This document shows, piece after piece, positions 8,221-42,278 of a stretch of 42,388 nucleotides of DNA (the stretch's first letter is position 1; the number at the start of each line of letters is the position of its first letter). Origin of the DNA: Cycloclasticus sp. (GTDB lineage: Bacteria > Pseudomonadota > Gammaproteobacteria > Methylococcales > Cycloclasticaceae); assembly GCA_002733135.1 (NCBI GenBank), contig NVUJ01000020.1, forward strand, positions 1-42,388. The letters run 5' to 3'. A program made the translations under genes and the position numbers. The notes under the pieces are model-generated. The model saw nothing but the letters and a program-made list of their open reading frames with translations. It ran no database searches and was not told the DNA's origin.

Positions 8221-8228
8221 AAATATAT

Positions 8229-8250: not shown

Positions 8251-8285
8251 TTAGTTATCCTTTTATTATTGGTAAGGCGTTAATA

Positions 8286-9248: not shown

Positions 9249-9280
9249 CCGTTATTTAAATCTAAAAAAACAATAAAATT

Positions 9281-10222: not shown

Positions 10223-10950
10223 GTGATAAAACAATTGCGTTAGTGACAGGTGCTAGCCGCGGTATTGGTAAGGCTATAGCACAACAATTGGTGGCGGACG
10301 GTTTTTATGTGATTGGAACCGCCACATCAGATAAAGGTGCATCAGCTATTTCAGACTATTTATCAAATTCTGGCGAAGGCATGACATTAAATGTGACAGA
10401 TGCGGAGTCTATTCAATCAGTTATTAAAGATATTGCTGGTTCTGTAGGCGCACCTACTGTATTGGTAAATAATGCCGGCATCACTAGAGATAACCTAATG
10501 TTGAGAATGAAGGACGATGAATGGGATGACATTATTTCAACTAATTTAAGTTCTATCTTTCGTGTTAGTAAAGCGTGCTTACGCGGCATGATGAAAAATA
10601 AAAAAGGACGTATCGTTAATATCGCATCTGTTGTTGGCGTGACAGGTAATGCGGGGCAAGCTAATTACGCAGCTGCTAAAGCGGGGGTTATTGGCTTTGG
10701 TAAATCGTTAGCCAAAGAAGTTGGCTCTAGAAACATTACCGTGAATACTGTTGCACCTGGGTTTATTGATACAGATATGACGAAAGCATTGTCAGAGGAT
10801 CAAAGAGCTGCTTTATTACAAGGTGTTCCACTAGGTCGTTTAGGTGATGCTGAAGAAATTGCGAATGCTGTTTCATTCCTGTGTTCGGATAAAGCAGCCT
10901 ATATTACCGGCGAAACATTGCACGTTAACGGCGGTATGTACATGTGCTAG
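10219..10950 (+). CDS. fabG: 3-oxoacyl-ACP reductase
   Basis: This is a 243-residue short-chain dehydrogenase that reduces 3-oxoacyl-ACP with NADPH. It has the nucleotide motif TGASRGIG (10-17), NNAG (84-87) and the catalytic S137, Y150 and K154 (YAAAK). The start ATG overlaps the fabD stop. A 193-bp gap follows, which contains the acpP promoter. Confidence 0.96.
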   Translation: MSDKTIALVTGASRGIGKAIAQQLVADGFYVIGTATSDKGASAISDYLSNSGEGMTLNVTDAESIQSVIKDIAGSVGAPTVLVNNAGITRDNLMLRMKDDEWDDIISTNLSSIFRVSKACLRGMMKNKKGRIVNIASVVGVTGNAGQANYAAAKAGVIGFGKSLAKEVGSRNITVNTVAPGFIDTDMTKALSEDQRAALLQGVPLGRLGDAEEIANAVSFLCSDKAAYITGETLHVNGGMYMC

Positions 10951-11061
10951 CTTCAACTAATTTAGTTTAAGTTAGCTCGGTAACCATTTGATTAAAATAA
11001 ATTAAATGGATTTAATTATTGATATTAAAGAGAGGGGGTTTGGTTTAAACGAATAGAAATG

Positions 11062-11090
11062 TTTAATCTTTACTAATTTATCAATATAAT
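11062..11090 (+). promoter_or_regulatory. Candidate acpP promoter
   Basis: A perfect TATAAT (11085-11090) lies 17 bp after TTTAAT (11062-11067), about 55 bp upstream of acpP. A dedicated promoter fits the very high ACP demand of the cell. Confidence 0.5.
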
Positions 11091-11143
11091 ACGGGTTCCA
11101 TAAGCTCTGCTTGTGGCCCATACAAAAATAGAGGATATTTAAA

Positions 11144-11380
11144 ATGAGTAATATTGAAGAACGCGTCAAAAAAATCGTTGCAGAACAACTTGGTGTTAAA
11201 GCGGAAGAAGTTACAAATGAAGCTTCATTCATCGACGACCTAGGTGCAGATTCATTAGATACTGTTGAATTAGTAATGGCTTTAGAAGAGGAGTTCGAAT
11301 GTGAAATCCCTGATGAGCAAGCGGAAGGCATCACAACCGTTCAACAAGCAATTGATTACGTTAATAATAACAAAGATTAA
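11144..11380 (+). CDS. acpP: Acyl carrier protein
   Basis: This is a 78-residue acidic four-helix carrier protein of fatty-acid synthesis. The phosphopantetheine site is S37 in [15 protein letters not shown] ribosome-binding site lies 8 bases before the ATG. It is flanked by its own promoter and a strong terminator, so it is likely to be expressed at a higher level than its neighbours. Confidence 0.98.
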
Positions 11381-11396
11381 ATCAATTTCTAATTTC

Positions 11397-11434
11397 CAAG
11401 CACGACTTCTTTGTAAGTCGTGCTTGTTTTATTT
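11397..11434 (+). terminator. Rho-independent terminator between acpP and fabF
   Basis: A perfect 12-bp stem, CAAGCACGACTT / AAGTCGTGCTTG (11397-11408 and 11415-11426), with a 6-nt loop is followed by TTTTATTT. It ends 14 bp before the fabF start and should stop most acpP transcripts, letting a fraction read through. Confidence 0.85.
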
Positions 11435-11447
11435 GTGAGAGTTAAAA

Positions 11448-12686
11448 GTGTCTAAACGTCGAGTAGTAGTTACAGGCTTAGGTTTGCTGTCTCCTTTGGG
11501 TGGCAATGTGGCTGAGTCTTGGGAAAATATTCTTAAAGGCCAAAGTGGTATCGGCTTAATCACTCGTTTTGATACGAGTGACTTTTCATCAAATTTTGGC
11601 GGTGCAGTCAAAAACTTTGATGTCAGTGATTACCTTTCGCCGAAAGACGCAAAAAAAATGGATCCTTTTATCCATTACGGCGTTGCAGCAGGCATGCAAG
11701 CTTTAGATGACTCTGGTATCGAGGTAACCGATGAAAACGCTGAGCGTATTGGTGTGGCCATTGGCGCAGGTATCGGTGGAATCTCTGGTATTGAGAAAGG
11801 CTATGATTCGTATAAAAAAGGCGGCCCTAGAAAAATTTCTCCTTTTTTTGTACCGTCTAATATTATTAATATGATTTCTGGAAACCTATCGATTTTGAGA
11901 GGCTTGAAAGGTCCTAATTTTGCTATTGTGACTGCATGTACAACGGGTGCTCACAACATTGGTGATGCAGCGCGTATTATTCAGTACGGTGATGCAGACG
12001 TGATGGTAGCCGGTGGTGCAGAGATGGCAACATCTATCACATCTTACGGTGGTTTCGCTGCGGCTAGAGCCTTGTCTCGGCGTAATAATTCACCTGAAAC
12101 AGCTAGCCGTCCTTGGGATAAAGACAGAGATGGGTTTGTACTCAGTGATGGCGCAGGTGTCGTTGTTCTTGAAGAGTATGAGCACGCAAAAAATCGTGGC
12201 GCTACTATTTATGCTGAATTAGCTGGGTATGGAATGAGTTCAGATGCGTTTCATATGACAATGCCCGTACAAAATGGTGATGGCGCATACCGCTGCATGA
12301 AAAATGCACTCAATGATGCGTCGTTGAACCCAGATCAAATTAGTTATATTAATGCGCATGGTACATCTACACCTGCTGGTGATGTTGCTGAAACACAAGC
12401 AGCTAAAAAACTGTTAGGCGATAAAGCATACAAAGTTCCTATGAGCTCTACTAAATCAATGACCGGTCATATGCTGGGCGCAGCCGGTGGTGCAGAAGCA
12501 GTTTTTTCTGTGCTGGCTATTCGTGATCAAGTTGCACCTGCAACAATTAATCAATTCACCGCTGATCCAGATTGTGATTTAGATTATGTACCGAATGAAG
12601 CACGACAAATGGATATGGATGTTGTCGTATCAAATTCTTTTGGATTTGGTGGCACCAACGGTACGCTTGTATTTAAACGCATTTAA
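11448..12686 (+). CDS. fabF: 3-oxoacyl-ACP synthase II (KAS II)
   Basis: The 412-residue elongating condensing enzyme carries catalytic C164 (TACTTGAHN), H304 (INAHGTST) and H341 ([10 protein letters not shown]). It starts with GTG at 11448 after a GAGAG ribosome-binding site. Because of the strong terminator just upstream, it depends on read-through. Confidence 0.96.
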
Positions 12687-12701
12687 GTGACCTGATTCCG
12701 G

Positions 12702-14063
12702 GTGACACTGGCTCTAGAAGATTGTGGGGACTATACAAGGGTTGCAATCCCTTTTGAAACAGATTTACTGAACTGTCATTCGTTTAATCCGCAACGTTAT
12801 CCCTTTTTATTAGAGAGCTCTCTTGTAAATAATTCCCACAATGGGTTTGATATATTGTTTGCTTTCCCTGGCGATACAATTGAAACTTTCGATATAGCGG
12901 ATAAGAATTTTTTTTCACGATTTGATAATGCTTTTAGCATTACCAATACCTCTAGCGACATTAAATCGCCCCGTTGCATTCCATTTACAGGCGGTTGGTT
13001 TGTTTTTTTAAGTTACGAACTTGTCGGCGCTATTGAAAATAAACTTGCCCACATTCACTCAGACGAAAACTTCCCTGTAGCCTGCGCTACCCGAATTCCA
13101 GTAGCGATTGTTAAAAGTCACCAGAAGCGATGTTGTTGGATTGTTTGCGAGAAAGGCCAAGAATCATTGTTAAAAGACGTGTGGAATGACCTTCAGAAAA
13201 TGCCGAATAAACAGGCTGAAAACGAACCTAAGGTGTTAATAAATGAAGATGTTTCGGACGTTTTTATTTCCGGTGTAGCTAAGATCAAGTCATATCTGAA
13301 AGAGGGCGACACCTTGCAGGTAAACCTTTCTAGGGAGTGGAAAGGTTGTGTTCAGGGTCGTACGAGTTATGTGGATGTTTATCGCTCTTTACAGCGACAT
13401 AACCCGGCACCTTTCGCAGGTTTAGCAACATTTAGAAATAGCGTTATTTGTTCATCGTCACCGGAGCGTTTGGTGAGCTGTACAGATAACGTCGTTCAAA
13501 TGAGGCCTATTGCTGGTACGCGTCCTAGGCATAAAGATGCTGATGTTGATCAGGCGTTGGCCGAAGAGCTGCTAAAAAATAGTAAAGAAAATGCAGAGCA
13601 CGTCATGTTAATTGACCTAATTCGCAATGATTTAGGTCGGATTTGTGAAACGGGTACGGTTGGTGTTGATGAGAAAATGGTCTTAGAGTCTTATGCAGCG
13701 GTTCATCATATTGTTTCTAATGTCAGTGGGAAATTAGTGCCTCAAATGACGCCGTCGGATATTATTAAAGCGGTATTCCCAGGTGGGACAATTACGGGGT
13801 GTCCTAAGGTTCGCTGTATGGAAATAATCTATGAATTAGAATCTGGCCCCAGAGGCGCTTATACAGGCTCTATGGGGTATGTTAATAATAATGGAGACAT
13901 GGACCTGAATATATTGATAAGAACGGTTGTCATGAACGATGACCATCTCAATTTTAGAACCGGTGCAGGTATTGTCTCCGACTCAATTGCTGACAATGAA
14001 TTACAAGAAACGCGACATAAGGCTAAGGCTTTATTAAATGCCTTGAATAACAATGAACGCTAG
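12702..14063 (+). CDS. pabB: Aminodeoxychorismate synthase component I
   Basis: The 453-residue chorismate-binding enzyme makes 4-amino-4-deoxychorismate for folate. The conserved blocks PIAGTRPR and FPGGTITGCPKVRCME are present. The order with pabC directly downstream (11-bp overlap) supports PabB over anthranilate synthase TrpE. It begins with GTG 15 bp after fabF. In E. coli this gene is elsewhere, so the fabF-pabB-pabC order is a local variation. Confidence 0.9.
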   Translation: MTLALEDCGDYTRVAIPFETDLLNCHSFNPQRYPFLLESSLVNNSHNGFDILFAFPGDTIETFDIADKNFFSRFDNAFSITNTSSDIKSPRCIPFTGGWFVFLSYELVGAIENKLAHIHSDENFPVACATRIPVAIVKSHQKRCCWIVCEKGQESLLKDVWNDLQKMPNKQAENEPKVLINEDVSDVFISGVAKIKSYLKEGDTLQVNLSREWKGCVQGRTSYVDVYRSLQRHNPAPFAGLATFRNSVICSSSPERLVSCTDNVVQMRPIAGTRPRHKDADVDQALAEELLKNSKENAEHVMLIDLIRNDLGRICETGTVGVDEKMVLESYAAVHHIVSNVSGKLVPQMTPSDIIKAVFPGGTITGCPKVRCMEIIYELESGPRGAYTGSMGYVNNNGDMDLNILIRTVVMNDDHLNFRTGAGIVSDSIADNELQETRHKAKALLNALNNNER

Positions 14064-14910
14064 TATGCTCATTAACGGAAAGTCTGCAACATTATTAAGC
14101 CCATTGGATAGAGGGTTTCAGTATGGGGATGGTTTATTTGAAACAATATTAATTGAGTCTGCTTGCCCTATTTTTCTTGTTGAACATTTAGCTCGGTTAG
14201 AAAAAGGTTGCGAAGTGCTCAACATTCCAATGCCCGATGCTACGCTAATCACAGACGAATTGTATCGAGTGATTGCTAATGAGCCATCTGGTGTTGCTAA
14301 AATAATACTGACTCGAGGTATTGGAACAAGGGGGTTTTTGCCGCCTTCGTCGCCTGAGGTAACACGCGTGGTGAGTTTCAATAGTAGTGAAACACCGTTA
14401 CCTCAAAAATTGTCGTCGATAGAGTTAACTACCTGTGACATCAACTTGAGCCGGCAGCCTCTTTTGGCCGGTATAAAACACTTAAATCAATTGGAACGTG
14501 TTTTAGCTCGAAGTTCAATGGCAGAAATAGACCGTATAGAAGGCTTGATGCTGGATACCGAAGACAATGTTATTGAAGGCATTATGAGTAATCTATTTAT
14601 TGCTAAAAATGGTATTTTAAAAACACCTGCACTCAAGTATTGTGGTGTATCGGGCGTCATCCGAAATTTTTTAATGACTAAGGCGAAGTTGGGTAATATT
14701 GAGTGCCTTGAAACCGAGCTGTCACTTGAGGACATACGATCAGCTGATGAAGTTTTTATGACAAATAGTTTGATGCCAGTGCGCGTAGTTAAGCATTTTA
14801 ATGACGAGGGAAATATGTTCAATAAAGAACAAATTCGTTATTCTACATGGGCGCTAGATAGCGTTATTGTAGAAACTAAACACCAAATTAATACTATCCA
14901 ATTTCCCTAA
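14053..14910 (+). CDS. pabC: 4-amino-4-deoxychorismate lyase
   Basis: This is a 285-residue class IV PLP enzyme that splits aminodeoxychorismate into p-aminobenzoate and pyruvate. The PLP lysine is K142 in GIKHLNQLERVL, a segment characteristic of the lyase. RGFQYGDGLFET (20-31) is the family N-terminal block. It overlaps pabB by 11 bp and is followed by mltG after 4 bp. Confidence 0.94.
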   Translation: MNASMLINGKSATLLSPLDRGFQYGDGLFETILIESACPIFLVEHLARLEKGCEVLNIPMPDATLITDELYRVIANEPSGVAKIILTRGIGTRGFLPPSSPEVTRVVSFNSSETPLPQKLSSIELTTCDINLSRQPLLAGIKHLNQLERVLARSSMAEIDRIEGLMLDTEDNVIEGIMSNLFIAKNGILKTPALKYCGVSGVIRNFLMTKAKLGNIECLETELSLEDIRSADEVFMTNSLMPVRVVKHFNDEGNMFNKEQIRYSTWALDSVIVETKHQINTIQFP

Positions 14911-14914
14911 CCGT

Positions 14915-15916
14915 ATGAAGAAAGCTCTTCTTTTAGTGATTATTATTGCCAGTCTAGCGGTTGCTGGTTTGTGGTTGCAGTATGACGATTCGATTAATCG
15001 TTCACACATTACAGAATCAATGGGTTCAGTTGTGGTTACTATTAAAAAAGGTCAGCATCTGAACCAAATTAGTTTAACGTTGGAACAACAAGGCGTTGTT
15101 GTAAACCCTTGGTTTAAATGGCTAGTAAGGATTGAAGGGGCAGCCAGTAAAATTCAGGCGGGCGAATATCAATTTTCACCAGGCTTAACACCGAAGGAAG
15201 TATTAGCTTTTCTGATTAAGGGGCAAGTCAATCAGTACGCTATTTCTATTATTGAGGGCCAAAGCTTTAAAGAATTACTAACGTCTATTCAGCGTAACTC
15301 AGCCATTAAAAGCACATTGCCTAGTCAGACGAATATGCTAACGTATATTAAATTATTGGGTATCGATGAGACGCATTTGGAAGGCACCTTGTTGCCAGAG
15401 ACTTACTTTTTTATCAAAGGGACTAGTGATGTTGATATCATCAAAAGAGCGCACCAAGCGATGCAGGTGTTTATTAGAGATGAGTGGCCCAAACGGAATA
15501 AAAAGGACGTTATAAAATCCCAATACGATGCCTTAATACTGGCATCAATCGTGGAAAAAGAAACAGCTGTTGGCTCTGAGCGGCCCCGTATAGCTGGTTT
15601 GTTCTTACGTCGGTTAGAAATAGGTATGAAGTTACAAACAGACCCAACAGTGATATACGGTATGGGCGATAATTATAAAGGTGATATTAGGTTTAGAGAT
15701 CTGCGTAAAGATACGCCCTATAATACGTATACGCGCTATGGTTTACCGCCAACGCCCATTGCAATGCCTGGTAAAGCATCTATTTTAGCGGTATTGCACC
15801 CTGAGAAAACACAGAGTTTATATTTTGTGTCAAAGGGCAATGGCACGCATATTTTTTCTAATACGCTTAAACAGCATAATGCCGCGGTGGATAAGTATCA
15901 ACGGAATAAAAAATAA
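14915..15916 (+). CDS. mltG: Endolytic murein transglycosylase MltG
   Basis: This 333-residue inner-membrane protein has one N-terminal helix (about 3-21), a LysM-like module and the YceG catalytic domain. The predicted catalytic glutamate is E214 in SIVEKETAVGSE, and LQTDPTVIYG follows. It is thought to cut nascent glycan strands and release them from synthesis. Its stop overlaps the tmk start by one base (TAATG). Confidence 0.94.
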   Translation: MKKALLLVIIIASLAVAGLWLQYDDSINRSHITESMGSVVVTIKKGQHLNQISLTLEQQGVVVNPWFKWLVRIEGAASKIQAGEYQFSPGLTPKEVLAFLIKGQVNQYAISIIEGQSFKELLTSIQRNSAIKSTLPSQTNMLTYIKLLGIDETHLEGTLLPETYFFIKGTSDVDIIKRAHQAMQVFIRDEWPKRNKKDVIKSQYDALILASIVEKETAVGSERPRIAGLFLRRLEIGMKLQTDPTVIYGMGDNYKGDIRFRDLRKDTPYNTYTRYGLPPTPIAMPGKASILAVLHPEKTQSLYFVSKGNGTHIFSNTLKQHNAAVDKYQRNKK

Positions 15917-16545
15917 TGGTTACAGGTAAATTTATAACGCTTGAAGGCGTTGAAGGTGTTGGTAAAACAACTAATTTAAACTTTATAGCAGAATATCTGG
16001 AGAAAGCAGGTAAGTCGGTTGTGATAACTAGAGAACCTGGTGGGACTGAGATTGCTGAGAAGATTAGGGCGTTACTCTTAGATCATAATGAAGAAAAGTT
16101 ATGTAATGAAGCAGAGCTACTATTAATGTTTGCGGCGCGGGCCCAACATGTTGAAAATGTCATTAAACCCGCGCTTGAGAAAGGTAGTTGGGTGCTATGT
16201 GATCGCTTTACTGATGCGACATATGCTTATCAGGGTGGTGGGCGTGACTTTAATATGAATGATATTAAGTGGATAGAGAACTTTGTCCAAAAGGGACTGG
16301 CTCCGGATAAAACAATACTGCTCGATTTGTCCGTTGAAGTTGGTTTGCAACGTGCTGCGAGTCGAAGTGAACCCGACCGTTTTGAGTCTGAGAAACAAGC
16401 CTTTTTTGAGAAGGTTCGGGGTGTTTATTTGGATAGAGCAAAAGTCGAACCTCAACGGTTTCATATTGTTGATGCATCCAAAACGGTGGAACAAGTACAA
16501 CAAAATATAGCGAGTTTTTTAGGTCAACTATTAATTAATGAATAA
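15916..16545 (+). CDS. tmk: Thymidylate kinase
   Basis: The 209-residue kinase phosphorylates dTMP to dTDP. It has the P-loop GVEGVGKT (11-18), the DR motif at D96-R97 (CDRFTDATYAYQGGGR) and a short lid. It overlaps mltG by 1 bp and holB by 8 bp. Confidence 0.96.
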   Translation: MVTGKFITLEGVEGVGKTTNLNFIAEYLEKAGKSVVITREPGGTEIAEKIRALLLDHNEEKLCNEAELLLMFAARAQHVENVIKPALEKGSWVLCDRFTDATYAYQGGGRDFNMNDIKWIENFVQKGLAPDKTILLDLSVEVGLQRAASRSEPDRFESEKQAFFEKVRGVYLDRAKVEPQRFHIVDASKTVEQVQQNIASFLGQLLINE

Positions 16546-17527
16546 TCAAACAACAACAGTTTACCCTTGGCTCCAAAAAAGCTGGAATCAACTGCGACGT
16601 TATCAACAACAAAATAGGTTACCTTCAGCCATTATGTTGGTCGGTGCAAAAGGCCTTGGTTTAAGTGAATTCGCCAAAATATTTGCCCATAGTGTATTTT
16701 GTTTAAATAAAAATAATGACGGCATGGCTTGCGGTTCTTGCTCTTCTTGTTTATTAGTTCAAGCCGGCAATTATCCTGATCTCTTTCACGTACAACCGGA
16801 AGAGGATAAAAAAAGTATTTCGATAGATGCGATTAGGAAGCTTAGTGCGTCGTTGGCTTTAAATAATCAATTTACAACACCACGAATAGTCATCATTGAT
16901 TCGGCTGACGTTATGCTACACCAGGCATCGAATAGCTTATTAAAAACATTGGAGGAACCGAGTGAAAATACGAGTTTAATACTTATCGCTCATAAGCTAT
17001 CGCGTGTCCCAATGACCATACGCAGTCGTTGCCAGATACTATCCATCAAAGATATTAATAGCCAACAAACGTCTTCATGGCTTAAAGCGGCTGGCTGTGT
17101 GGAGGCGGAAGAGTACCTTGATTTAGCTGGAGAGCTACCACTTCTTGCGCTGGATATGTGGCAGATGGAGGCGTTAGAGAAAAGAAATGCCTTACGTAAG
17201 GATTTTGTTAATTTATTGGATGGTAAATTAGACCCTTTATTTTTTGCCAATCAATGTAAAAGCCTACAAGAATTCCCTGTTTTAAAATGGATGGCGTCTT
17301 GGTTATCCGATGTAGTAAAGTGTTTGCACGAAGCAAATAATATTCAATCATTGGTTCCGAATATTGATGACGGCTTGAAAGTTGTAACAAAAAAGCTACA
17401 CTTAAAGCAAATTACTGATTTATTAGCTCGGTTAGCGACAGTAACTGATATAGAATCGAGCCAAATAAATCAATTGTTAATGTTAGAAGAGTTTTCGATA
17501 CATTGTTATTCGTTAACTACAAAATAA
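16538..17527 (+). CDS. holB: DNA polymerase III delta' subunit
   Basis: The 329-residue clamp-loader subunit has zinc-binding cysteines C55, C65, C68 and C71 (CGSCSSC), the sensor block SNSLLKTLEEP and the SRC motif in IRSRCQI. The Walker A region is degenerate (VGAKGLGLS), as expected for the non-hydrolysing delta' subunit. The gene sits in the usual tmk-holB-pilZ-tatD order. Confidence 0.94.
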   Translation: MNNQTTTVYPWLQKSWNQLRRYQQQNRLPSAIMLVGAKGLGLSEFAKIFAHSVFCLNKNNDGMACGSCSSCLLVQAGNYPDLFHVQPEEDKKSISIDAIRKLSASLALNNQFTTPRIVIIDSADVMLHQASNSLLKTLEEPSENTSLILIAHKLSRVPMTIRSRCQILSIKDINSQQTSSWLKAAGCVEAEEYLDLAGELPLLALDMWQMEALEKRNALRKDFVNLLDGKLDPLFFANQCKSLQEFPVLKWMASWLSDVVKCLHEANNIQSLVPNIDDGLKVVTKKLHLKQITDLLARLATVTDIESSQINQLLMLEEFSIHCYSLTTK

Positions 17528-17540
17528 AGGTGTTTAAAAG

Positions 17541-17897
17541 ATGAGTTCTAGTGGAAGTGATACTCGGCAGGGAATTTTATCCTTAACAATTAAGGATAAA
17601 AAAGCGTTGTATGCGGCATATATGGATTACGTTACGGGTGGTGGTTTATTTATTTCAACAAATAAAAAGTATACGCTAGGTGATGAGGTCTTTATGTTAC
17701 TGAATTTAATGGGTGAGAGTGAACGAATACCCGTTGCAGGTAAAATTATTTGGATTACACCCATTGGCTCTGAAGGTTCTAGATCTACAGGTGTTGGCGT
17801 ACAATTTAGTGAACAAGATGGTGGTGTTGCACGTGCAAAAATTGAAAACTATTTGGCGGGTACAGCAGCTTCTGGGAAACCAACGCATACGATGTAG
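17541..17897 (+). CDS. pilZ: PilZ-domain protein, type IV pilus PilZ
   Basis: The 118-residue protein is a single PilZ domain. As in the founding PilZ of Pseudomonas, there is no RxxxR cyclic-di-GMP motif near the N-terminus, so it probably does not bind that messenger. PilZ is required for type IV pilus assembly through PilB/FimX-type partners, none of which are in the window. It is followed by a clear terminator. Confidence 0.88.
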   Translation: MSSSGSDTRQGILSLTIKDKKALYAAYMDYVTGGGLFISTNKKYTLGDEVFMLLNLMGESERIPVAGKIIWITPIGSEGSRSTGVGVQFSEQDGGVARAKIENYLAGTAASGKPTHTM

Positions 17898-35463: not shown

Positions 35464-35491
35464 ACTTCGTATAATGTATATTATGTTAAAT
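35464..35491 (+). other. dif site / left prophage attachment site (attL)
   Basis: This 28-bp XerC/XerD site has XerC arm ACTTCGTATAA, centre TGTATA and XerD arm TTATGTTAAAT. Centre and XerD arm are identical to E. coli dif. Overall 24 of 28 positions match E. coli, and the XerC arm fits the broader proteobacterial pattern with one change. It lies in a non-coding gap between the MATE gene and the prophage, so it is likely the functional chromosome-dimer resolution site. Confidence 0.85.
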
Positions 35492-35511
35492 TGGTAAACT
35501 TAAGATATTCA

Positions 35512-35548
35512 ACTATGCTTAAGGGTCAACAAATAATACAAGCATAGT
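35512..35548. repeat. 9-bp inverted repeat upstream of the left HTH gene
   Basis: ACTATGCTT (35512-35520) and AAGCATAGT (35540-35548) form a perfect inverted repeat around 19 bases, ending 4 bp before the ATG at 35553. It may be an operator or an RNA hairpin covering the ribosome-binding region. In the circular phage it lies inside the 3' end of the extended repressor frame. Confidence 0.6.
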
Positions 35549-35552
35549 AAAA

Positions 35553-35921
35553 ATGGATTTTGAATTACTGTATAGAAAACAATTTAACCGCAAAGGATTA
35601 GCACAATATTTAAAAATAACAGAACAAACTATTGAACGTTGGGAAAAAACAAACAAAGCGCCGATTGCTGTTATTAAATTAATGCAGATTTTAAACAAAG
35701 AACTTTCGCACACTGAAACAGAACTTAAAGATTTCTATTTCAAAAACGGTAGGCTTTTCACGCCAGAACACGAACCGATAACAGCAGGTTCAATACGAAG
35801 TATTAAATATCTGCGTATGACCATAGACCACCTAACAAAAGACAAGACGTTAAATAATGTGGCTAAAAGGCAACGTACGGCTACTGTCATAAATATTAAA
35901 CAGCATCGAAATAATGAGTAA
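35553..35921 (+). CDS. Phage HTH regulator (DUF3653-like)
   Basis: This 122-residue protein has an N-terminal helix-turn-helix (GLAQYLKITEQTIERWEKTNKAP, approximately residues 15-37) and a basic C-terminus. It resembles the small DNA-binding proteins found in Vibrio-type filamentous phages, but the family match is from memory. In the prophage it has no phage promoter upstream, only dif and host sequence. In the circular phage it would follow the repressor gene by 5 bp. Its role may be control of lysogeny or of excision. Confidence 0.65.
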   Translation: MDFELLYRKQFNRKGLAQYLKITEQTIERWEKTNKAPIAVIKLMQILNKELSHTETELKDFYFKNGRLFTPEHEPITAGSIRSIKYLRMTIDHLTKDKTLNNVAKRQRTATVINIKQHRNNE

Positions 35922-35990
35922 TTAGGTCAAGACAGAAAGAAGTTAATAATTCGTTGCACTCAGCACCCTAGAACTTCGAACTAAAGTGTC

Positions 35991-37229
35991 TCAATTTTTG
36001 TAAGTATAGCCAGTTTGTGATAAAGGAATTTGAATAGTCGTTTTTCCTTTCTTTAGATAAAACACATTACCAACTTTTACTGCATACCAACCCAAAACGC
36101 GCAAATCATCGAGAGATATAAAAGTGACACGAGTTTCATTTTTTATTTGAATAGTAGCATTAAGACCTTGAGTATCGTTATAAATTGGAATTGATAATTC
36201 AGAACCTACAATCATCGACTGAAAAATATCAACCGTATTAACAGATAGAATTGTTTGTTGAGGCAAAGTCAAAGCTTGTTTAAATTCAACCTCTGAATTA
36301 TCTAAAACTTCTTGACCTGTAACATTAGCTAATAATTTATTATCAAGAGGATTATTGAAATAAAAAAAAACAATTAAACCAACTATAAGTAAGCCGATTT
36401 TCATTTTATTTTTTGCGCCTTCGTGATGATTTAAAGCCATAGTATCGCCCTCTTTAATTGAAGAAACTTTATTAGTAATATCGTCTATTTTAATTTTATA
36501 TTCGTCGATTAGCTTTTTTCCAGAAAGTAGATACTCGGATACAACAGAATAATTGCAACGCATATCAACAGTTCGGTTATTCAGATACTCATAATCTTCT
36601 ACAAACGTCTGTGATGTATCATAAGCCAACGAAAAGCCTTTTCTCGAATAACTTATAGTTTCCATAACTTCGGATTGCTCTGAACGTCCGTTAAGCTTCA
36701 AAGCGGTGTAATTTTCAGGAAGCATACCTTTGAAGCCGAACATTCGCATTATACGACCCATATAAGGAATTGAAACTAAATCGTCCGATTTACATATCAC
36801 AAGATTATCACAAAGAGCCTTATAAACCTCATCGTGTACCTGCTCTTTATTCTGCGCTAGACAAAAAATATCCCATCCGTATTTTCGAGATTGAACTAAC
36901 CAAGCGACGATGGCCTTAAACTCCTTGTCGCTTTTAGAATTTAAAAATAACGATATTTCATCAAGCAATATTAGACCAAATTTAGTTTTATCATAATGTT
37001 CTTTGGTCAAGAACTTTTCATCACAACCTAAACCAAGTTGACGAAATGATGAAGAAGAAGGAATGTCTGGTATGCGTGTTAATTTGTAATCAACTTTTAT
37101 TCTACAATCGGGATAAATATTAAGATTTGTCGCTACTGATTTATTCGCATTAAGATACGAAAATGCCTCAATCACAGAATACAACGATTTTCCAGAACCT
37201 CTAGTCCCCGTTATAAAAGAACAAGCCAT
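35991..37229 (-). CDS. zot: Zot-like assembly ATPase (pI)
   Basis: This 412-residue inner-membrane ATPase drives filamentous phage assembly. The Walker A motif GTRGSGKS is at residues 8-15, Walker B LILLDE at 86-91, and one membrane helix at about 276-292 leaves a periplasmic tail. The frame is open to 37361, but the ATG at 37229 is preferred: it puts Walker A at the N-terminus as in other Zot/pI proteins, and it overlaps the previous stop by one base (TAATG). It is the last gene of the phage operon. Confidence 0.9.
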   Translation of the reverse strand: MACSFITGTRGSGKSLYSVIEAFSYLNANKSVATNLNIYPDCRIKVDYKLTRIPDIPSSSSFRQLGLGCDEKFLTKEHYDKTKFGLILLDEISLFLNSKSDKEFKAIVAWLVQSRKYGWDIFCLAQNKEQVHDEVYKALCDNLVICKSDDLVSIPYMGRIMRMFGFKGMLPENYTALKLNGRSEQSEVMETISYSRKGFSLAYDTSQTFVEDYEYLNNRTVDMRCNYSVVSEYLLSGKKLIDEYKIKIDDITNKVSSIKEGDTMALNHHEGAKNKMKIGLLIVGLIVFFYFNNPLDNKLLANVTGQEVLDNSEVEFKQALTLPQQTILSVNTVDIFQSMIVGSELSIPIYNDTQGLNATIQIKNETRVTFISLDDLRVLGWYAVKVGNVFYLKKGKTTIQIPLSQTGYTYKN

Positions 37230-37558
37230 TATGAACCGGCTGTTGTTCTTGCTTTCATTAATGCTATTTGTAATTTCATATCGAAAGTGAAACGAACGAA
37301 TCGAGAAGTAATAATTGCTATTAAGCAACTTGCGGCATTGTCTGGCATGAACCAACCCCAAACACGAGTAACTTCAGTAGGAACACTTACTGAAATGCCA
37401 TCTAATAAACTAACAGAACCACTCACAAGTAATGCAATGAAAGCAAGAATTACAACTAAATATAAAACAATAATGCCCAGTCTAAAAGCTAAAGCCGCGC
37501 CCTTTTCAGTGAAGAAAGAAACGAACCAAGCAATAATTCCAACAAAAAATAAAGGCAT
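37229..37558 (-). CDS. DUF2523-type minor coat protein (pVI-like)
   Basis: The 109-residue protein has two or three hydrophobic helices (residues about 3-17, 24-48 and 75-90). It lies between the adsorption protein and Zot, the standard place of pVI, which caps the virion end with pIII. It starts 2 bp after the upstream stop and overlaps zot by one base, so all three genes are translationally linked. Confidence 0.75.
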   Translation of the reverse strand: MPLFFVGIIAWFVSFFTEKGAALAFRLGIIVLYLVVILAFIALLVSGSVSLLDGISVSVPTEVTRVWGWFMPDNAASCLIAIITSRFVRFTFDMKLQIALMKARTTAGS

Positions 37559-37560
37559 AA

Positions 37561-39024
37561 TTAAACCGATTTAGTAGAAAGTAAGATTTTAATACAAGTA
37601 AAGAAAGTGATAATAAAAAAGACCCACGCTAGAACATCCCGCAAAGGTTGTAATTTGTCGCAAGGTTCTATGACAAAAGCATGACCAAAAATTGTTGTAT
37701 TTATAGAACCGGAACAAACAGAAGCAGGAAAAATTAAATATCTGTTAATGAAATAATCTGCACTAAAATTTGATACGTTTGATATACCATAATCGCTCTC
37801 TCCATCATCTGAAAACTCATTGCTAGCATCAGAACGTTCAGAAGCTAGTTTAGCCTCAGCTTCAGCAATGGTTCTTGCGTTTTGTTCAACGTCTATTCCT
37901 TCTTCATTTATAGTCACAACACATTCTTGACCTGGTGAGCAATTACCTTCCTGCTCGAGTTGGTCTTTACCACTAATGCCAGAACCACCAGTCCCTGTAT
38001 TATTAGTTGTTTCAGAAGTAATACTGCCCAAAGAATCTTTAGTAACAACGTTAGTCGTTGAGCCGCTTTTAGGTTCAGCAGGCTTAGAACTTTCTATTAT
38101 CTCACCAGTTTTTTTATCAACAGTAACAACATCAAAACTTGAACCATTTTGTGTAAATGTAGTCGTTGTAGTTGTAGTCGTAGAACCATCTGCATTAGTA
38201 ACAGTAACTTTGCTTTCCGTAGCCGTAATAACATCAGAGGAACTTTCAGAGAATTTAAAATTATCAGGATTATCAGATTTAGTTTTTTCTGACTCAACAA
38301 TAGTAGTATCTGTTTTACTTTCTGTGGTTGTAGTATCACCGACCAAAGGAGAATCCTCAACTACAACAGTTGGTAAAATAGTAGTATCTTTATCAACATT
38401 TCCACCATCTACTTCATCACCTGAAACCACAGGAGGACTTTCCTGCAATTCAATGACTATTTCAGGAGTAGAGGTAGCCGGTGGAGGATTAGAACTTGAA
38501 CCGTAACCAGAATACGAATAAACACATACCATGCCTTGTTGAAACAAACTTAAATAACAATCTCTTACATATGGATTTAACGGTATAAAATTATCACCTA
38601 CATCAGCCGTAAAATAACAACCTTCATATTCGACAACGGAAGGCGGGATAGCATTTGGACCACCAATAATTACGTCAAAGTTAGTATAAGTATCAGTTTT
38701 AGCTTGACATTCCTCGTCTGTTTTTTCTGAACTTACAACACATTGACCACTAGCATCAAACTCCTGTCCAGTCGGACAATTTAATTGAACGTAATAAATA
38801 GCCCATACAACGCCTGCGCCGTCAAACCATTCCACATTATTACCAGCACCACTACAGCCGCCGAGCCAGCCCACATGATCTAAATTACATTTATCCATTG
38901 CTATCTGAACAGTCTGATAAACACCAGCGCCGGGAAAATCAATTCGTCCAGTGTGCTTTGAATATGTTATGGATGAAAAAAAGGCAAGTACACATAATAA
39001 TAAAAATGCACTTGCCCTTTTCAT
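37561..39024 (-). CDS. Adsorption/attachment protein (pIII-like)
   Basis: This 487-residue protein has a signal peptide (about 1-22, MKRASAFLLLCVLAFFSS...), a cysteine-containing N-terminal region, a long Thr/Ser/Val-rich low-complexity middle including a run of threonines, and a C-terminal membrane helix (about 462-482) followed by a basic tail. This architecture and the place before the pVI-like gene match the receptor-binding pIII of filamentous phages or TspB-like proteins. Sequence-level similarity cannot be claimed. Confidence 0.75.
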   Translation of the reverse strand: MKRASAFLLLCVLAFFSSITYSKHTGRIDFPGAGVYQTVQIAMDKCNLDHVGWLGGCSGAGNNVEWFDGAGVVWAIYYVQLNCPTGQEFDASGQCVVSSEKTDEECQAKTDTYTNFDVIIGGPNAIPPSVVEYEGCYFTADVGDNFIPLNPYVRDCYLSLFQQGMVCVYSYSGYGSSSNPPPATSTPEIVIELQESPPVVSGDEVDGGNVDKDTTILPTVVVEDSPLVGDTTTTESKTDTTIVESEKTKSDNPDNFKFSESSSDVITATESKVTVTNADGSTTTTTTTTFTQNGSSFDVVTVDKKTGEIIESSKPAEPKSGSTTNVVTKDSLGSITSETTNNTGTGGSGISGKDQLEQEGNCSPGQECVVTINEEGIDVEQNARTIAEAEAKLASERSDASNEFSDDGESDYGISNVSNFSADYFINRYLIFPASVCSGSINTTIFGHAFVIEPCDKLQPLRDVLAWVFFIITFFTCIKILLSTKSV

Positions 39025-39035
39025 ATCAACAGCTA

Positions 39036-39266
39036 TTAACTAGCAGAAGAAGCGGCACGTTTGAACATGCCCAATACGATAAATGCAATCGTTATTGGTA
39101 CAGCCGCAGTCCAAGCCAAATCAACTAGAGCCAAAGCGTCTACTTGAAGGTCTGTAAAAGCTGTAGTAGCAGAAATAGGTAGAGCCGCAGAAGCTGAACC
39201 AACAGCGCCAACAGTTAAACCTAAAGCCACACCAATTTTACGACCCATATATTTAATGAAATTCAT
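39036..39266 (-). CDS. Major coat protein (pVIII-like)
   Basis: The 76-residue precursor has a signal peptide with basic start and cleavage predicted after ASA (residue 27). The mature 49-residue chain has an amphipathic start, one membrane helix (TAAVPITIAFIVLGMF) and a basic end (KRAASSAS) that would contact the DNA. Size and layout match pVIII. It lies 11 bp before the adsorption gene. Confidence 0.85.
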   Translation of the reverse strand: MNFIKYMGRKIGVALGLTVGAVGSASAALPISATTAFTDLQVDALALVDLAWTAAVPITIAFIVLGMFKRAASSAS

Positions 39267-39287
39267 AATTTTATCCTTATAGTTTCA

Positions 39288-39404
39288 TTATTTTAAAATG
39301 CCTACTGCTCTCTTAAAAATGAGAAGAAGTAAGCCCCCGACATATCCCAATCCAAAAGCACCTAGATATTGCCCAACAACATCAGTAATCTCTGCAATAG
39401 TCAT
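39288..39404 (-). CDS. Small phage membrane protein, 38 aa (pVII/pIX-like)
   Basis: The frame starts MTIAEITDVVGQYLGAFGLG and contains one long hydrophobic helix, ending in FKRAVGILK. Filamentous phages need two tiny hydrophobic proteins (pVII, pIX) at the virion tip, usually near the coat gene. Position, size and the basic tail fit that role. It is also similar in layout to a second coat protein without a signal peptide. Confidence 0.6.
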   Translation of the reverse strand: MTIAEITDVVGQYLGAFGLGYVGGLLLLIFKRAVGILK

Positions 39405-39430
39405 AAGTCTTTTGAATTGAGTATGAACAT

Positions 39431-39583
39431 TTACCTTTGCTGTCCTGCTATCCAACCCAACGCAAAAATAATTGCTAATCCAGATATGAATATAATATCG
39501 TTTTGTGTACCTAGTAAATCCGTAGTTTGACTTGCAAAAACATTGTTAATAGACAAAACGAGCAGAGCAAAGGCGTTAATCAT
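39431..39583 (-). CDS. Small phage membrane protein, 50 aa
   Basis: The frame starts with ATG at 39583, overlapping the ssDNA-binding protein stop by one base (TAATG), which argues that it is translated. An N-terminal hydrophobic segment ending NVFA may be a signal peptide; a second helix (IIFISGLAIIFALGWIAG) follows. It may be a virion-tip protein (pVII/pIX-like) or a minor coat component. Confidence 0.6.
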   Translation of the reverse strand: MINAFALLVLSINNVFASQTTDLLGTQNDIIFISGLAIIFALGWIAGQQR

Positions 39584-39858
39584 TATTTTAAAATAGTAAC
39601 CTTGACAATAGTTTCTTTAGCATTACCACCGCCCAGAGCTCTCATCTCAGTAACGCAATCAATCTCAACAGGTGTTGAAAAATTACTATTTTTTAATACA
39701 TCGTAGACTTGCGGTTCACAACGAACATCAATACCCGCAGAACCTTTTTTAGTATCACTTTGTTGCATGGGTACTACTGCATAAAGTTTGCAAAAGTTAT
39801 AATTATTACCTTCATATTCACCTTTGTGAAGTGAAACACCAGTTGCATAAATTTTCAT
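39583..39858 (-). CDS. Phage single-stranded DNA-binding protein (DUF1293/pV-like)
   Basis: The 91-residue protein starts MKIYATGVSLHKGEYEGNNY and contains MRALGGGNAKE, matching my knowledge of DUF1293-type ssDNA-binding proteins of filamentous phages. It would coat progeny single strands and prevent their conversion to double strands. It lies 2 bp after rep. Confidence 0.75.
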   Translation of the reverse strand: MKIYATGVSLHKGEYEGNNYNFCKLYAVVPMQQSDTKKGSAGIDVRCEPQVYDVLKNSNFSTPVEIDCVTEMRALGGGNAKETIVKVTILK

Positions 39859-39860
39859 TT

Positions 39861-41018
39861 TTAATTCCTTATTTTGTTTTTAAGATTTTGAATATCATTT
39901 ACAGCATTTAAACGAGAAGGAATTTTCTTTTTTCCTTCAGTTAAAATTTCTATGGTTCTTTCAGAACCGTACAACTCATTGAAAGCATATATATATGCAC
40001 CGAACTGATGCCTAACAATAGCAAGTGACCTATCTATATCAAGTTGTGTAGTTTTCTTACTAGTTAGCACTTTAGATTGCTTTTCAAAAAGAAAAGATAG
40101 TGCTGGATACGCTCCTGCCAGATATTGCCCAGAATTGACTAGAACTGCATAGGGAAGCGTTCGGTCTTTATTAGACAATTCCAACTCAATACGTACCCAG
40201 TCACTAAAGAGATGTGAAAAAGAGCCACCTAACTGCTTACCTTTTTCATAAATTCGGAGAAGTTTCCCCGATTGTTTTTTTCCAATATATAGCGTTCTGC
40301 CCTTATCATTATCATTTACCCAATCACCACGTTGCTCAATAGAAGGAGAACGAGAACGAGTTGTAAACAATCCATCGTGATAAGATTGAAGAAAATCAAA
40401 GACAGTATATTTTGAGTAAAATAAATCACATGATAAATCGACTCTAGTTATAGTAGCTTCAATAGATTCAAGAAACATCTCTAACCGACCTTCCCAACCT
40501 ACTGAAGAATGTAGTAAACCTTGACCTTTCACAGTAACAAGACAAGTGCTATTTTGACCACCGATACAAACTTGACCAAAATTGTTTACACCGACCTCAT
40601 AACTATCAGAATAAAAATTTAAGCCAGATTTTCTTTTTTCAGTAATTCCAAAACCAAAAATGAAAAGCAACTGTTCAGAAAGCTGAATAATAATATCTTC
40701 TTGAGAAGATGAATTAGTATAAAACTTACCAAGTTTGAAAGTGAAAGAAACCCAATCAACTAGAGAAAGCATAATATCTTTACTTGTATCTGGTAATGGA
40801 ACTTTAACTACAACGCCTTTATTGTGTTTTATATGTATGAACTTTTCTTCTAAAGAATGATTATTAAAAGATTTCTTTCCCCCCATGTTATTACAGGGGG
40901 TAAGCGCGTCTTTTGATGCCTCGCCAGCCTCGCTTGAAAGCTCGGCTGTTGATGCACCAAACGAAGCTATACTAGCTTTAGTTAAATGGCTATATTCTGA
41001 AATATTTATAATATTCAT
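39861..41018 (-). CDS. Rolling-circle replication initiator (RstA/PF02486 type)
   Basis: This 385-residue protein has the Rep blocks of the phage replication initiation factor family: DWVSFTFK, the segment ending EATITRVDLSCDLF, TLYIGKKQSGKLLRIYEKG and DWVRIELELSN. It should nick the plus strand at the origin and start rolling-circle synthesis. The first 44 residues are encoded by unusually GC-rich DNA with two hairpins. A second ATG at codon 45 lies inside the first hairpin, so a shorter Rep cannot be excluded. The longer start is preferred because it follows the previous stop by 2 bp. Confidence 0.85.
   Translation of the reverse strand: MNIINISEYSHLTKASIASFGASTAELSSEAGEASKDALTPCNNMGGKKSFNNHSLEEKFIHIKHNKGVVVKVPLPDTSKDIMLSLVDWVSFTFKLGKFYTNSSSQEDIIIQLSEQLLFIFGFGITEKRKSGLNFYSDSYEVGVNNFGQVCIGGQNSTCLVTVKGQGLLHSSVGWEGRLEMFLESIEATITRVDLSCDLFYSKYTVFDFLQSYHDGLFTTRSRSPSIEQRGDWVNDNDKGRTLYIGKKQSGKLLRIYEKGKQLGGSFSHLFSDWVRIELELSNKDRTLPYAVLVNSGQYLAGAYPALSFLFEKQSKVLTSKKTTQLDIDRSLAIVRHQFGAYIYAFNELYGSERTIEILTEGKKKIPSRLNAVNDIQNLKNKIRN
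40880..40948. repeat. Two hairpins in the 5' part of rep: candidate replication origin or packaging signal
   Basis: Hairpin 1 (40880-40900): CCCCC, a bulged A, TGT, loop TATT, ACA, GGGGG. Hairpin 2 (40925-40948): CAGCC/GGCTG outer stem, TC/TC internal loop, GCTT/AAGC inner stem and a GA loop. The surrounding GC content contrasts with the AT-rich prophage. Confidence 0.55.
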
Positions 41019-41020
41019 AA

Positions 41021-41437
41021 TTAAAAATAAATGTTATGAATAAAAACACCAGAGAAAAACAAAAAACCTAAACCGATAAACGAAAAAACAATAAGTGAAA
41101 ACAAATCTAATTGAGCATCGGAAAATAAAAAAACTGAATCATCAAGTACCTGTTCATCTTGAAATTTTGAAACAAATTTAATATTAGACGGACTAGTAAT
41201 AAATGAAATTTTAAGAGAACGGAACTTATCAGCAAGAATTGGCAAACCAAGCTTATGTACAGCGTTTTTTCTAGCGATATTAATAAAATGGTGATAATCC
41301 TTTGCAGATAAATAGTAAATTCCATTTAGCTGTGATTGGTCATAAGCTTCAAGAACATAGTTGTAATAGGTTTCGATTTTGTTAATTACAGCTTGTTCTT
41401 GGATTGTGATAACAGAATTATTGTATTGAATGTTCAT
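41021..41437 (-). CDS. Unknown phage protein heading the rep operon
   Basis: I do not recognise this 138-residue protein. The N-terminal 110 residues are soluble-looking with several Tyr and Lys residues. The C-terminal 25 are strongly hydrophobic (FSLIVFSFIGLGFLFFSGVF), so it is probably tail-anchored. A GAGGGG ribosome-binding site precedes the ATG. It is the first gene behind the leftward phage promoter, the place of early control proteins in CTX-type phages. Confidence 0.65.
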   Translation of the reverse strand: MNIQYNNSVITIQEQAVINKIETYYNYVLEAYDQSQLNGIYYLSAKDYHHFINIARKNAVHKLGLPILADKFRSLKISFITSPSNIKFVSKFQDEQVLDDSVFLFSDAQLDLFSLIVFSFIGLGFLFFSGVFIHNIYF

Positions 41438-41449
41438 ATAAACCCCTCA

Positions 41450-41479
41450 TTTATAATTGAAAAAACTGTACAGTGTAAG
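41450..41479 (-). promoter_or_regulatory. Leftward phage promoter (rep/structural operon)
   Basis: On the minus strand CTTACA (41479-41474) and TATAAA (41455-41450) are 18 bp apart, about 12 bp before the 138-aa gene. The -35 region overlaps the large inverted repeat, which suits repression. Confidence 0.4.
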
Positions 41480-41496
41480 TCACTCTTTACACTGTA
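41469..41496. promoter_or_regulatory. Probable phage operator, 10-bp inverted repeat
   Basis: TACAGTGTAA and TTACACTGTA are perfect inverted repeats around 8 bases, covering the -35 region of the leftward promoter. An 8-bp palindrome CTGTACAG (41466-41473) overlaps its left arm. Confidence 0.6.
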
Positions 41497-41497
41497 G

Positions 41498-41530
41498 TTG
41501 GAATTTACAGGTACATGACATAGTATGTCA
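41498..41530 (+). promoter_or_regulatory. Rightward repressor promoter with operator over its -10 box
   Basis: TTGGAA (41498-41503) and TAGTAT (41521-41526) are 17 bp apart. The -10 box lies inside a 15-bp palindrome TGACATA-G-TATGTCA (41516-41530), suggesting autoregulation of the repressor gene. Confidence 0.4.
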
Positions 41531-41560
41531 AGCGTAAGTTACAAATAACCAGGAAATAAT

Positions 41561-41893
41561 ATGAAAATGGCTAAATTAATGAAGGAAATTAGAGCAATCC
41601 ATAATAACGATTCTGAAACAGCAAGACGTTTGGGCATAAGCAGACAATCAGTATTTAATATTTCTGATGGAACAAATATCCCAAAGGATGAAACTATTGT
41701 AGCTATGGCTAAAGAGTTAAAACTTGATGAAGCTAAACTAATGATACAAGCCAAAGTCCAAAGAAGTCGAGGTCACTCAAAAGAAGTATGGGAAAAAATA
41801 GCAAAAAAGTATGAAAGCGTTGCGGCTTCAATCCTTCTATTGCCTGCCCTACCCCTTATTTTTGATGCGATTAATGTATATTATGTAAAATAG
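41561..41893 (+). CDS. Phage HTH repressor (DUF3693-like), C-terminus encoded by the attachment site
   Basis: The integrated form has 110 residues: a helix-turn-helix (SETARRLGISRQSVFNISDG, about 18-37) and a C-terminal hydrophobic segment (SILLLPALPLIFDAI). Its place, divergent from the rep operon with palindromes between, is that of the lysogeny repressor. The last eight codons and part of the stop lie within the right dif-like site. In the reconstructed circular phage the frame continues for 18 residues beyond K110. A good AGGAAA ribosome-binding site precedes the ATG. Confidence 0.8.
   Translation: MKMAKLMKEIRAIHNNDSETARRLGISRQSVFNISDGTNIPKDETIVAMAKELKLDEAKLMIQAKVQRSRGHSKEVWEKIAKKYESVAASILLLPALPLIFDAINVYYVK
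41847..41854 (-). other. KOPS-type octamer on the minus strand
   Basis: CCCTACCC on the plus strand is GGGTAGGG on the minus strand, pointing left towards the dif site at 35464-35491, the orientation expected to the right of dif. It lies in the repressor gene and may be coincidental. Confidence 0.25.
41864..41891 (+). other. Right dif-like prophage attachment site (attR)
   Basis: XerC arm GATGCGATTAA, centre TGTATA and XerD arm TTATGTAAAAT match 24 of 28 positions of E. coli dif. The 15 bases TAATGTATATTATGT are shared with the left site. It overlaps the repressor 3' end and stops 5 bases before the first CRISPR repeat. Confidence 0.8.
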
Positions 41894-41896
41894 TCA

Positions 41897-42278
41897 CGAT
41901 TCATCCCCACGCCTGTGGGAAACACACAAGTAAATCATAAATTAGATTGAATTAATGCGGTTCATCCCCACGCCTGTGGGAAACACAATCGGGATGATGG
42001 TATCAGAAGATATTAAAGGCGGTTCATCCCCACGCCTGTGGGAAACACGGGTTATTAGGATATTAGTTATTGTAATTATGCGGTTCATCCCCACGCCTGT
42101 GGGAAACACAAGCTATCTCAACACGCCACGCAATGCCGACCCGGTTCATCCCCACGCCTGTGGGAAACACCTCTGTTAATTGCTCAACTTCCTCAGTTTT
42201 AACGGTTCATCCCCACGCCTGTGGGAAACACATCGTCTGTCAATGATGCGCACATGTCGCTAACGGTTCATCCCCACG
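41897..42278 (-). CRISPR. Type I-E CRISPR array, trailer end, interrupted by an insertion sequence
   Basis: Six complete 29-bp repeats begin at 41897, 41958, 42020, 42081, 42142 and 42203. A seventh is cut after 15 bases (42264-42278). The six spacers are 32 nt, except the second, which is 33 nt. The repeat runs CGGTTCATCC...GGGAAACAC on the plus strand and has a CCCAC/GTGGG stem. It is the reverse of the E. coli-type I-E crRNA sense, so crRNAs (handle ATGAACCG) come from the minus strand and the leader should lie to the right, beyond the insertion. The leftmost repeat has one change (third base A), as usual for the trailer end. No cas genes are in the window. Confidence 0.95.

What the first reader, a model, noticed from the sequence alone, without database searches (positions are those of the whole stretch)
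41561..41893. Phage attachment site lies inside the repressor gene: integration appears to shorten the repressor
Seen: the last eight codons and the first base of the stop of the HTH repressor lie in the right dif-like site (41864-41891). Joining this site to the left one through their shared 15-base core, as in the excised circle, keeps the frame open through 35491-35547. This adds LVNLRYSTMLKGQQIIQA before a TAG, only 5 bp upstream of the second HTH gene (35553). Integration would thus remove 18 residues from the repressor and separate two genes that are adjacent in the circle. Known: some mycobacteriophages (BPs, Brujita) have attP in the repressor gene, and the shortened integrated form is the stable, active one. 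Inference: this filamentous phage uses the same logic with host XerCD as recombinase.
Basis: partly seen in the sequence, partly recalled or inferred. Interest (0 to 1): 0.9.

Follow-up and report, generated by a model that had tools for sequence, protein, structure and literature searches.

The report
Filamentous phage integration trims its repressor
A thread-like phage carries its docking site inside its repressor gene, so inserting into the bacterial chromosome cuts the end off the repressor and parts it from the next gene; this is already reported for related phages, and here it is found in a new host group and compared more widely.

Summary
Joined at the shared core, the phage circle encodes a 128-residue HTH1; the prophage encodes 110. 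By shuffling, the window tail alone could be chance (P 0.04-0.18). Comparison decides: a same-genus prophage (HTH1 45% identical) also crosses its att site, in another frame; 14 of 14 distinct Vibrio-type sequences keep the frame open; in 12 of 13 deposited phage records HTH1 runs through the site. In Vibrio phages the phage-side centre is 7 bp (25 of 25) and reads through; dif's 6-bp centre (59 of 59) puts TAA in frame.

The kind is known: Yamada 2013 reported attP in phiRSS0 ORF13, cut from 156 to 130 residues, and proposed a prophage role. Not seen in my paper searches: the second gene's best NCBIfam match is the VC1465 Xer recombination activation factor, below cut-off. Repressor-attP-recombination gene is also the order in mycobacteriophage BPs. 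Whether trimming changes activity is unshown; no ssrA-like end is seen, and signs of selection on the tail are mixed.

The parts
41561..41893 (+). HTH1, putative repressor, 110-residue prophage form; last nine codons and first stop base lie in attR
   Evidence: Pfam HTH_3 23.4 bits (cut-off 23), PHROG 638 E 8.8e-17
41864..41891 (+). right dif-like site (attR); core 41872-41886
35464..35491 (+). left dif-like site (attL); core 35472-35486
35487..35547 (+). predicted 3' end of HTH1 in the excised circle (completes V, then K and 18 further residues, TAG)
35553..35921 (+). HTH2, 122 residues, best NCBIfam match VC1465 family Xer recombination activation factor, below its cut-off; follows HTH1 in the circle
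   Evidence: E 7.1e-10, 38.9 bits, cut-off 70
41516..41530 (.). operator-like palindrome TGACATA-G-TATGTCA, at the -35 hexamer and spacer of a predicted minus-strand promoter (41531-41502)
41469..41496 (.). perfect inverted repeat TACAGTGTAA-8-TTACACTGTA; also scored as terminator-like on the minus strand
41021..41437 (-). first gene of the divergent phage operon, 138 residues, no Pfam family
39861..41018 (-). replication initiator (Rep_trans)
39036..39266 (-). major coat protein (Gp8 family)
37561..39024 (-). large protein in the adsorption-protein position, no firm family
   Evidence: position only
37229..37558 (-). minor coat protein (DUF5455)
35991..37235 (-). Zot/protein I-like assembly protein (a longer TTG-start reading to 37361 is open)

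Best explanation
This is a filamentous prophage integrated at dif by host XerCD, with a cassette in the order repressor (HTH1), attP, HTH2. Shown in sequence: in the circle HTH1 would read through attP for 18 more residues and end 5 bp before HTH2; in the prophage HTH1 stops at attR and HTH2 lies at the other end, 6.3 kb away. Inferred: HTH1 represses the divergent replication operon through the palindromes at 41469-41530 in both states. HTH2 is a XafT-like activator of Xer recombination, expressed with HTH1 in the circle, so that it favours integration; integration cuts it from the HTH1 promoter, which shuts the activator off and steadies the prophage, while the repressor keeps being made from its own promoter in trimmed form. 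Whether trimming itself changes repression is open; I think separation of HTH2 is the more likely point of selection.
For: Frame and gene spacing. A same-genus prophage has the same cassette, HTH1 45% and HTH2 57% identical, while the rest of the window phage gave no blastn (E 1e-4) or tblastx (E 1e-5) match to it, so the cassette is shared as a unit. Of 13 deposited phage records HTH1 runs through the site in 12; in the eight of these with an annotated following regulator gene it starts 4 to 77 nt before the HTH1 stop ends, 8 of 8. The VGJ record itself marks the functional attP inside orf154. HTH2 matches NF040522 as best family in 13 of 14 proteins tested (4 of 4, 9 of 10); four HTH1 proteins do not. 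Three HTH2 queries by phmmer found 6, 10 and 7 of 12 other HTH2s and 0 of 7 HTH1s. No plus-strand promoter match between 35300 and 35600. Operators. Host XerC and XerD. phiRSS0 lysogen immune to phiRSS0 but not to phiRSS1, which lacks ORF13.
Against: All 13 HTH2 matches lie below the curated cut-off of 70 bits, and the three Xanthomonas ones cover only the C-terminal half of the profile. Co-transcription of HTH1 and HTH2 is not shown: no consensus plus-strand promoter was found upstream of HTH1 either, the only plus-strand match lying across attR. Codon-position counts in Vibrio tails are mixed: variable columns 4/0/5 at positions 1/2/3 in one group but 3/5/2 in another. The VEJ HTH1 stops before the site. 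The window attR XerD arm (TTATGTAAAAT) departs from all 11 full-core genus dif sites, so the original attB is not certain. No excised molecule of this phage was seen.
Confidence: 0.55

Rival explanations
1. Passive overlap: attP sits at the very end of the repressor gene because that is where integration does no harm. The tail is dispensable, the two forms behave alike and no switch exists.
For: The tail varies in length and sequence; codon-position counts show no steady constraint; the VEJ record stops at codon 98, before the site, and is still a deposited phage; L114, whose site has a 7-bp centre, stops in the site itself.
Against: The frame stays open in 14 of 14 distinct Vibrio-type sequences, and HTH1 stop and HTH2 start sit close or overlap in Xanthomonas and Vibrio records, the window and its relative.
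Confidence: 0.28
2. BPs-like proteolytic switch: the 128-residue form is unstable and inactive, the 110-residue prophage form is stable and gives immunity.
For: Same geometry as BPs; Yamada's Hypothesis 1 for phiRSS0, truncated form for prophage stability and immunity.
Against: No ssrA-like ending, by eye, in the long forms read here; tails end differently between relatives.
Confidence: 0.12
3. The long form differs by membrane association: hydrophobic stretches lie before and, in Xanthomonas-type phages, after the site, so trimming removes a second segment.
For: Hydropathy 2.02 at residue 86 of window HTH1; second peaks 1.64 and 1.36 at the site in Cf1c and toucan80; VAIphi ORF9 gains a predicted membrane segment on integration into some sites.
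Against: The window tail is not hydrophobic (0.42); VAIphi integration lengthens rather than trims its protein; no structure could be computed.
Confidence: 0.05

Closest known systems
Ralstonia phage phiRSS0, ORF13 (Yamada 2013, PMC3816273; passages read)
   Same: dif/XerCD-integrated filamentous phage; attP inside an HTH regulator gene, near its 3' end; integration makes a new stop and shortens the protein at the C-terminus (156 to 130); prophage and immunity hypothesis stated
   Different: Different dif sequence; 26 residues removed rather than 18; the passages I saw do not speak of the gene that follows; the record was not held here, so no direct comparison
Xanthomonas phages XacF1, Cf1c, phiXv2 (PMC4076744 passages; records)
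   Same: attP inside the HTH regulator, which ends 4 bp over the start of the next gene; that gene weakly matches the Xer activation factor family
   Different: dif read in the opposite direction; tail hydrophobic
Vibrio phages VGJ, VCY, VFJ, VfO3K6 and kin (records)
   Same: Order HTH1, att site inside it, HTH2 overlapping; HTH2 in the same family
   Different: 7-bp centre opens the frame; in the window both sites have 6-bp centres and the prophage stop comes from bases just after the site
Mycobacteriophage BPs gene 33-32 cassette (PMC4557955 passages)
   Same: attP inside the repressor gene, recombination gene downstream on the same transcript, shorter prophage repressor
   Different: Own integrase rather than host Xer; long form degraded through an ssrA-like tag, not seen here
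XafT of satellite phage TLCphi (mostly recalled; named in a passage of PMC9765430; title in the reference list of PMC7307601; original papers not held)
   Same: HTH2 best NCBIfam match carries this family's name
   Different: Score below the curated cut-off; activity untested

Membership tests
XerCD/dif-integrating filamentous phages | prophage flanked by dif-like sites sharing the core | tested here: met
XerCD/dif-integrating filamentous phages | inovirus core genes (Rep, Gp8 coat, Zot/pI) | tested here: met
XerCD/dif-integrating filamentous phages | no integrase of its own | tested here: met
   no recombinase family among nine phage proteins scanned; small ORFs not scanned
XerCD/dif-integrating filamentous phages | host XerC and XerD present | tested here: met
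XerCD/dif-integrating filamentous phages | excision and re-integration by XerCD | not testable with these tools
   needs cells or reads
phiRSS0/XacF1-type attP-in-regulator | regulator frame crosses attP in the circle and stops anew after integration | tested here: met
   in silico join, 128 to 110 residues
BPs-type integration-dependent immunity | attP within the repressor gene; shorter prophage form | tested here: met
   in silico join
BPs-type integration-dependent immunity | ssrA-like tag on the long form | tested here: not met
   ends IIQA and LKAH; other tails; judged by eye
BPs-type integration-dependent immunity | phage-encoded integrase downstream | tested here: not met
   HTH2 matches no integrase family; may be a Xer activator
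BPs-type integration-dependent immunity | short form active, long form inactive | not testable with these tools
   needs expression
VC1465 Xer recombination activation factor (HTH2) | score over the curated cut-off (70 bits) | tested here: not met
   38.9 bits
VC1465 Xer recombination activation factor (HTH2) | best family and covers most of the profile | tested here: met
   profile 9-87 of 111, E 7.1e-10 against 6.5e-4 for the next
VC1465 Xer recombination activation factor (HTH2) | activates XerD | not testable with these tools
   needs assay
DUF3693 (HTH1) | score over the cut-off (21 bits) | tested here: not met
   window 15.5 bits; Vibrio-type L138 and Cf1c homologues 71.9 and 52

The most novel reading that the evidence does not exclude
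The Xer site is a coding switch. Across many dif-using filamentous phages a repressor and a Xer recombination activator form one unit read through attP. Host dif supplies the stop (often its own TTATGTTAA), attP removes it by one extra base in the centre or one changed base in the XerD arm, and each integration trims the repressor and silences the recombination activator, so the phage turns its own integration machinery off by integrating. It would be a convergent copy of the BPs repressor-attP-integrase switch built on host recombinases.
Probability: 0.35. Interest if true: 0.78.

Novelty: new member of a known kind. Interest (0 to 1): 0.48.

Why it matters
Truncation of the regulator on integration was published for one Ralstonia phage and noted as possible for XacF1, but left as a hypothesis. 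The comparison here shows the same geometry in several phage groups and ties it to a gene that looks like a Xer activator. That gives a simple testable reason why phages without an integrase could integrate readily yet stay put, and a second independent case of the BPs logic.

Tried and rejected
Degron reading: set aside for lack of any shared ssrA-like end (by eye). Tail under protein-level selection: not carried; window against its relative differs 4/4/5 at codon positions 1/2/3 over 14 codons (counted by eye from the sequences), and Vibrio groups disagree. Close-relative searches of viral contigs and genome contigs with window HTH1 or with the HTH1 or HTH2 pair gave nothing. Window HTH1 found a match in 6 of 61 relatives, its own genome included; PF12472 in 4 of 369 class genomes; the HTH1 pair in 6 of 369; alignment A4 in 73 of 369, of which I used only loci already known; the rest score low, look like generic HTH and were not examined one by one. 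Of 15 loci read (L005-L009, L058-L066), HTH1 ends in or runs through a dif-like stretch in L005, L008, L009, L058 and L062, and L006 breaks off there; no such case in the other nine. No convincing second att site was found in the Methylobacter-type loci L069-L081 (two weak hits), so they were not counted in the frame test. Of 84 Vibrio-type loci (80 kept of 152 found, plus 4 records) 25 held both HTH2 and a recognised core; 59 did not (13 of these had an HTH2 match without a core) and did not enter the frame test. The 25 include one unsplit long form (L138), the rest are attL-type. In three of the 14 distinct sequences another frame is open too, for 148 codons. Of the 80 loci HTH1 ends in TTATGTTAA in 59, otherwise in 14, runs off the locus in 7. 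Structure prediction gave no result.

Full report
What is there. The window ends in a filamentous prophage (35472-41886) flanked by two dif-like sites that share a 15-base core. Its minus-strand genes include a Rep_trans initiator, a Gp8-type coat protein, a DUF5455 protein and a Zot/pI-like protein. On the plus strand lie HTH1 at the right end and HTH2 at the left end. The core, with up to one mismatch, occurs nowhere else in the held genome, and the genome has XerC and XerD over their curated cut-offs.

The junction. HTH1 ends DAINVYYVK-stop, all nine codons inside the right site. Joined at the core it runs on for 18 residues and stops 5 bp before HTH2. If the exchange lay beyond the one-base difference next to the core, the residues would be the same. 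By shuffling, such an open tail has a probability of 0.13-0.18, and a first stop in the last three codons before HTH2 one of 0.04, so the window alone proves little.

A relative. A prophage in a same-genus genome (G013, L033) has HTH1 45% and HTH2 57% identical; outside these two genes the window phage gave no match to it at the thresholds used. Its HTH1 stops TGT TAA in attR; the joined attP reads TGT AAA and continues KIAGFNNSAMLKAH, against KLVNLRYSTMLKGQ in the window. The core is read in another frame there. The stop is 16 nt before the HTH2 ATG. Against 11 genus dif sites with the full core, the G013 frame stops as CILC at 11 of 11; the window frame stops within 1 to 4 residues after VYYV at 10 of 11 and after 21 at one.

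Vibrio-type phages. Of 80 IMG/VR loci (the best 80 of 152), HTH1 ends in the dif arm TTATGTTAA in 59, elsewhere in 14, and runs off the locus in 7. In 25 of 84 loci both HTH2 and a core were found: 24 of attL type and one unsplit (L138). They give 14 distinct sequences, and the HTH1 frame is open for 33-42 codons in 14 of 14, past the start of HTH2; the other two frames stop within 4 to 21 codons except in three sequences, where one of them is open for 148. The centre between the arms is 7 bp in 25 of 25 of these and 6 bp in 59 of 59 HTH1 ends in dif. The one-base difference puts the dif TAA out of or into frame. Many of these loci are close kin, so the counts are not independent events. A published review gives attP of VGJ as 29 bp. 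L138 shows the long form in one sequenced contig without any join.

Deposited phage records. In 13 records (eight Vibrio, four Xanthomonas, toucan80) HTH1 runs through the site in 12: ten by the motif search, VCY and VFJ. VEJ stops at codon 98, before the site. The centre is 7 bp in eight of eight Vibrio records. In the eight records of the 12 with an annotated following regulator gene that gene overlaps the HTH1 end by 4 to 77 nt; in toucan80 an unannotated ORF follows after 30 nt; Vf33 and phiLF have no annotation there, and in K04M1 the next annotated CDS is a short one that I did not count. The VGJ record marks the functional attP inside orf154; phiXv2 marks attP inside its HTH gene.

The second gene. 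HTH2 has NF040522, VC1465 family Xer recombination activation factor, as best NCBIfam match: window E 7.1e-10, G013 6.9e-15, VGJ 9.2e-11, XacF1 2.6e-4, and 9 of 10 further proteins including two beside dif in other genus members (the toucan80 ORF had no match). All scores are below the cut-off of 70 bits. Four HTH1s do not match it. By phmmer three HTH2 queries found 6, 10 and 7 of 12 other HTH2s and none of 7 HTH1s; phiXv2 and the toucan80 ORF were found by none. I therefore propose that integration parts a recombination activator from the promoter it shares with the repressor. For BPs, repressor and integrase are described as read from one promoter with attP in the repressor gene (passages), so the plan is alike though the parts differ.

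Repressor role. The divergent region holds TGACATA-G-TATGTCA at a predicted minus-strand promoter and a 10-base perfect inverted repeat. Promoter-like matches there were about as many as in shuffles (3 found, mean 2.3), so this is support, not proof. A phiRSS0 lysogen is immune to phiRSS0 but not to phiRSS1, which lacks the regulator.

What is known. Yamada 2013 (PMC3816273, passages) states that attP lies in ORF13, that integration creates a new stop and removes 26 residues, and that the truncated form may stabilise the prophage and give immunity. The XacF1 paper says ORF12 may be split by integration (passages). VAIphi integration prolongs ORF9 (passages). The finding is thus a new member of a known kind. 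I did not find the 6/7-bp frame reading or the Xer-activator link to these phages in searches, which cover only an open-licence library and of which I saw listings and a few papers' passages; the original VGJ and XafT papers were not held. NCBIfam already holds the family name.

Limits. No excised molecule, expression or activity was seen. Signs of selection on the tail are mixed. The window attR arm TTATGTAAAAT differs from all 11 full-core genus dif sites, so an earlier element may have lain there.

Noticed in passing
window 41898-42277; G000:C8 (L191) 8171-17667: A CRISPR array abuts attR directly; it breaks off at what looks like an insertion-sequence end, and contig C8 holds like repeats with type I-E cas genes (Cas3e, Cas6e, Cas7e, Cas5e, Cas8e, Cas1e), so the array may be split by the insertion.
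   Followed up: partly
window 41881-41891: The attR XerD arm reads TTATGTAAAAT, unlike TTATGTTAAAT at all 11 full-core genus dif sites, but like the attP arm of the G013 phage; it may come from an earlier element at dif.
   Followed up: partly
L035, L038, L039, L043, L044: HTH2-like stretches lie just left of dif in five other genus members by tblastx; L038 also has a Rep-like gene there by eye. The two tested match the Xer activation factor family.
   Followed up: partly
L043 around 2385: Another genus member has, by eye, CRISPR-like repeats of a different type and two transposase-like ORFs beside dif.
   Followed up: no
L194 (VEJ) 642-938: VEJ HTH1 is annotated as ORF98 and stops before the att site, unlike its relatives.
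   Followed up: no
window 41469-41496: The inverted repeat upstream of the replication operon is followed by a T run on the minus strand and could also be an attenuator.
   Followed up: no
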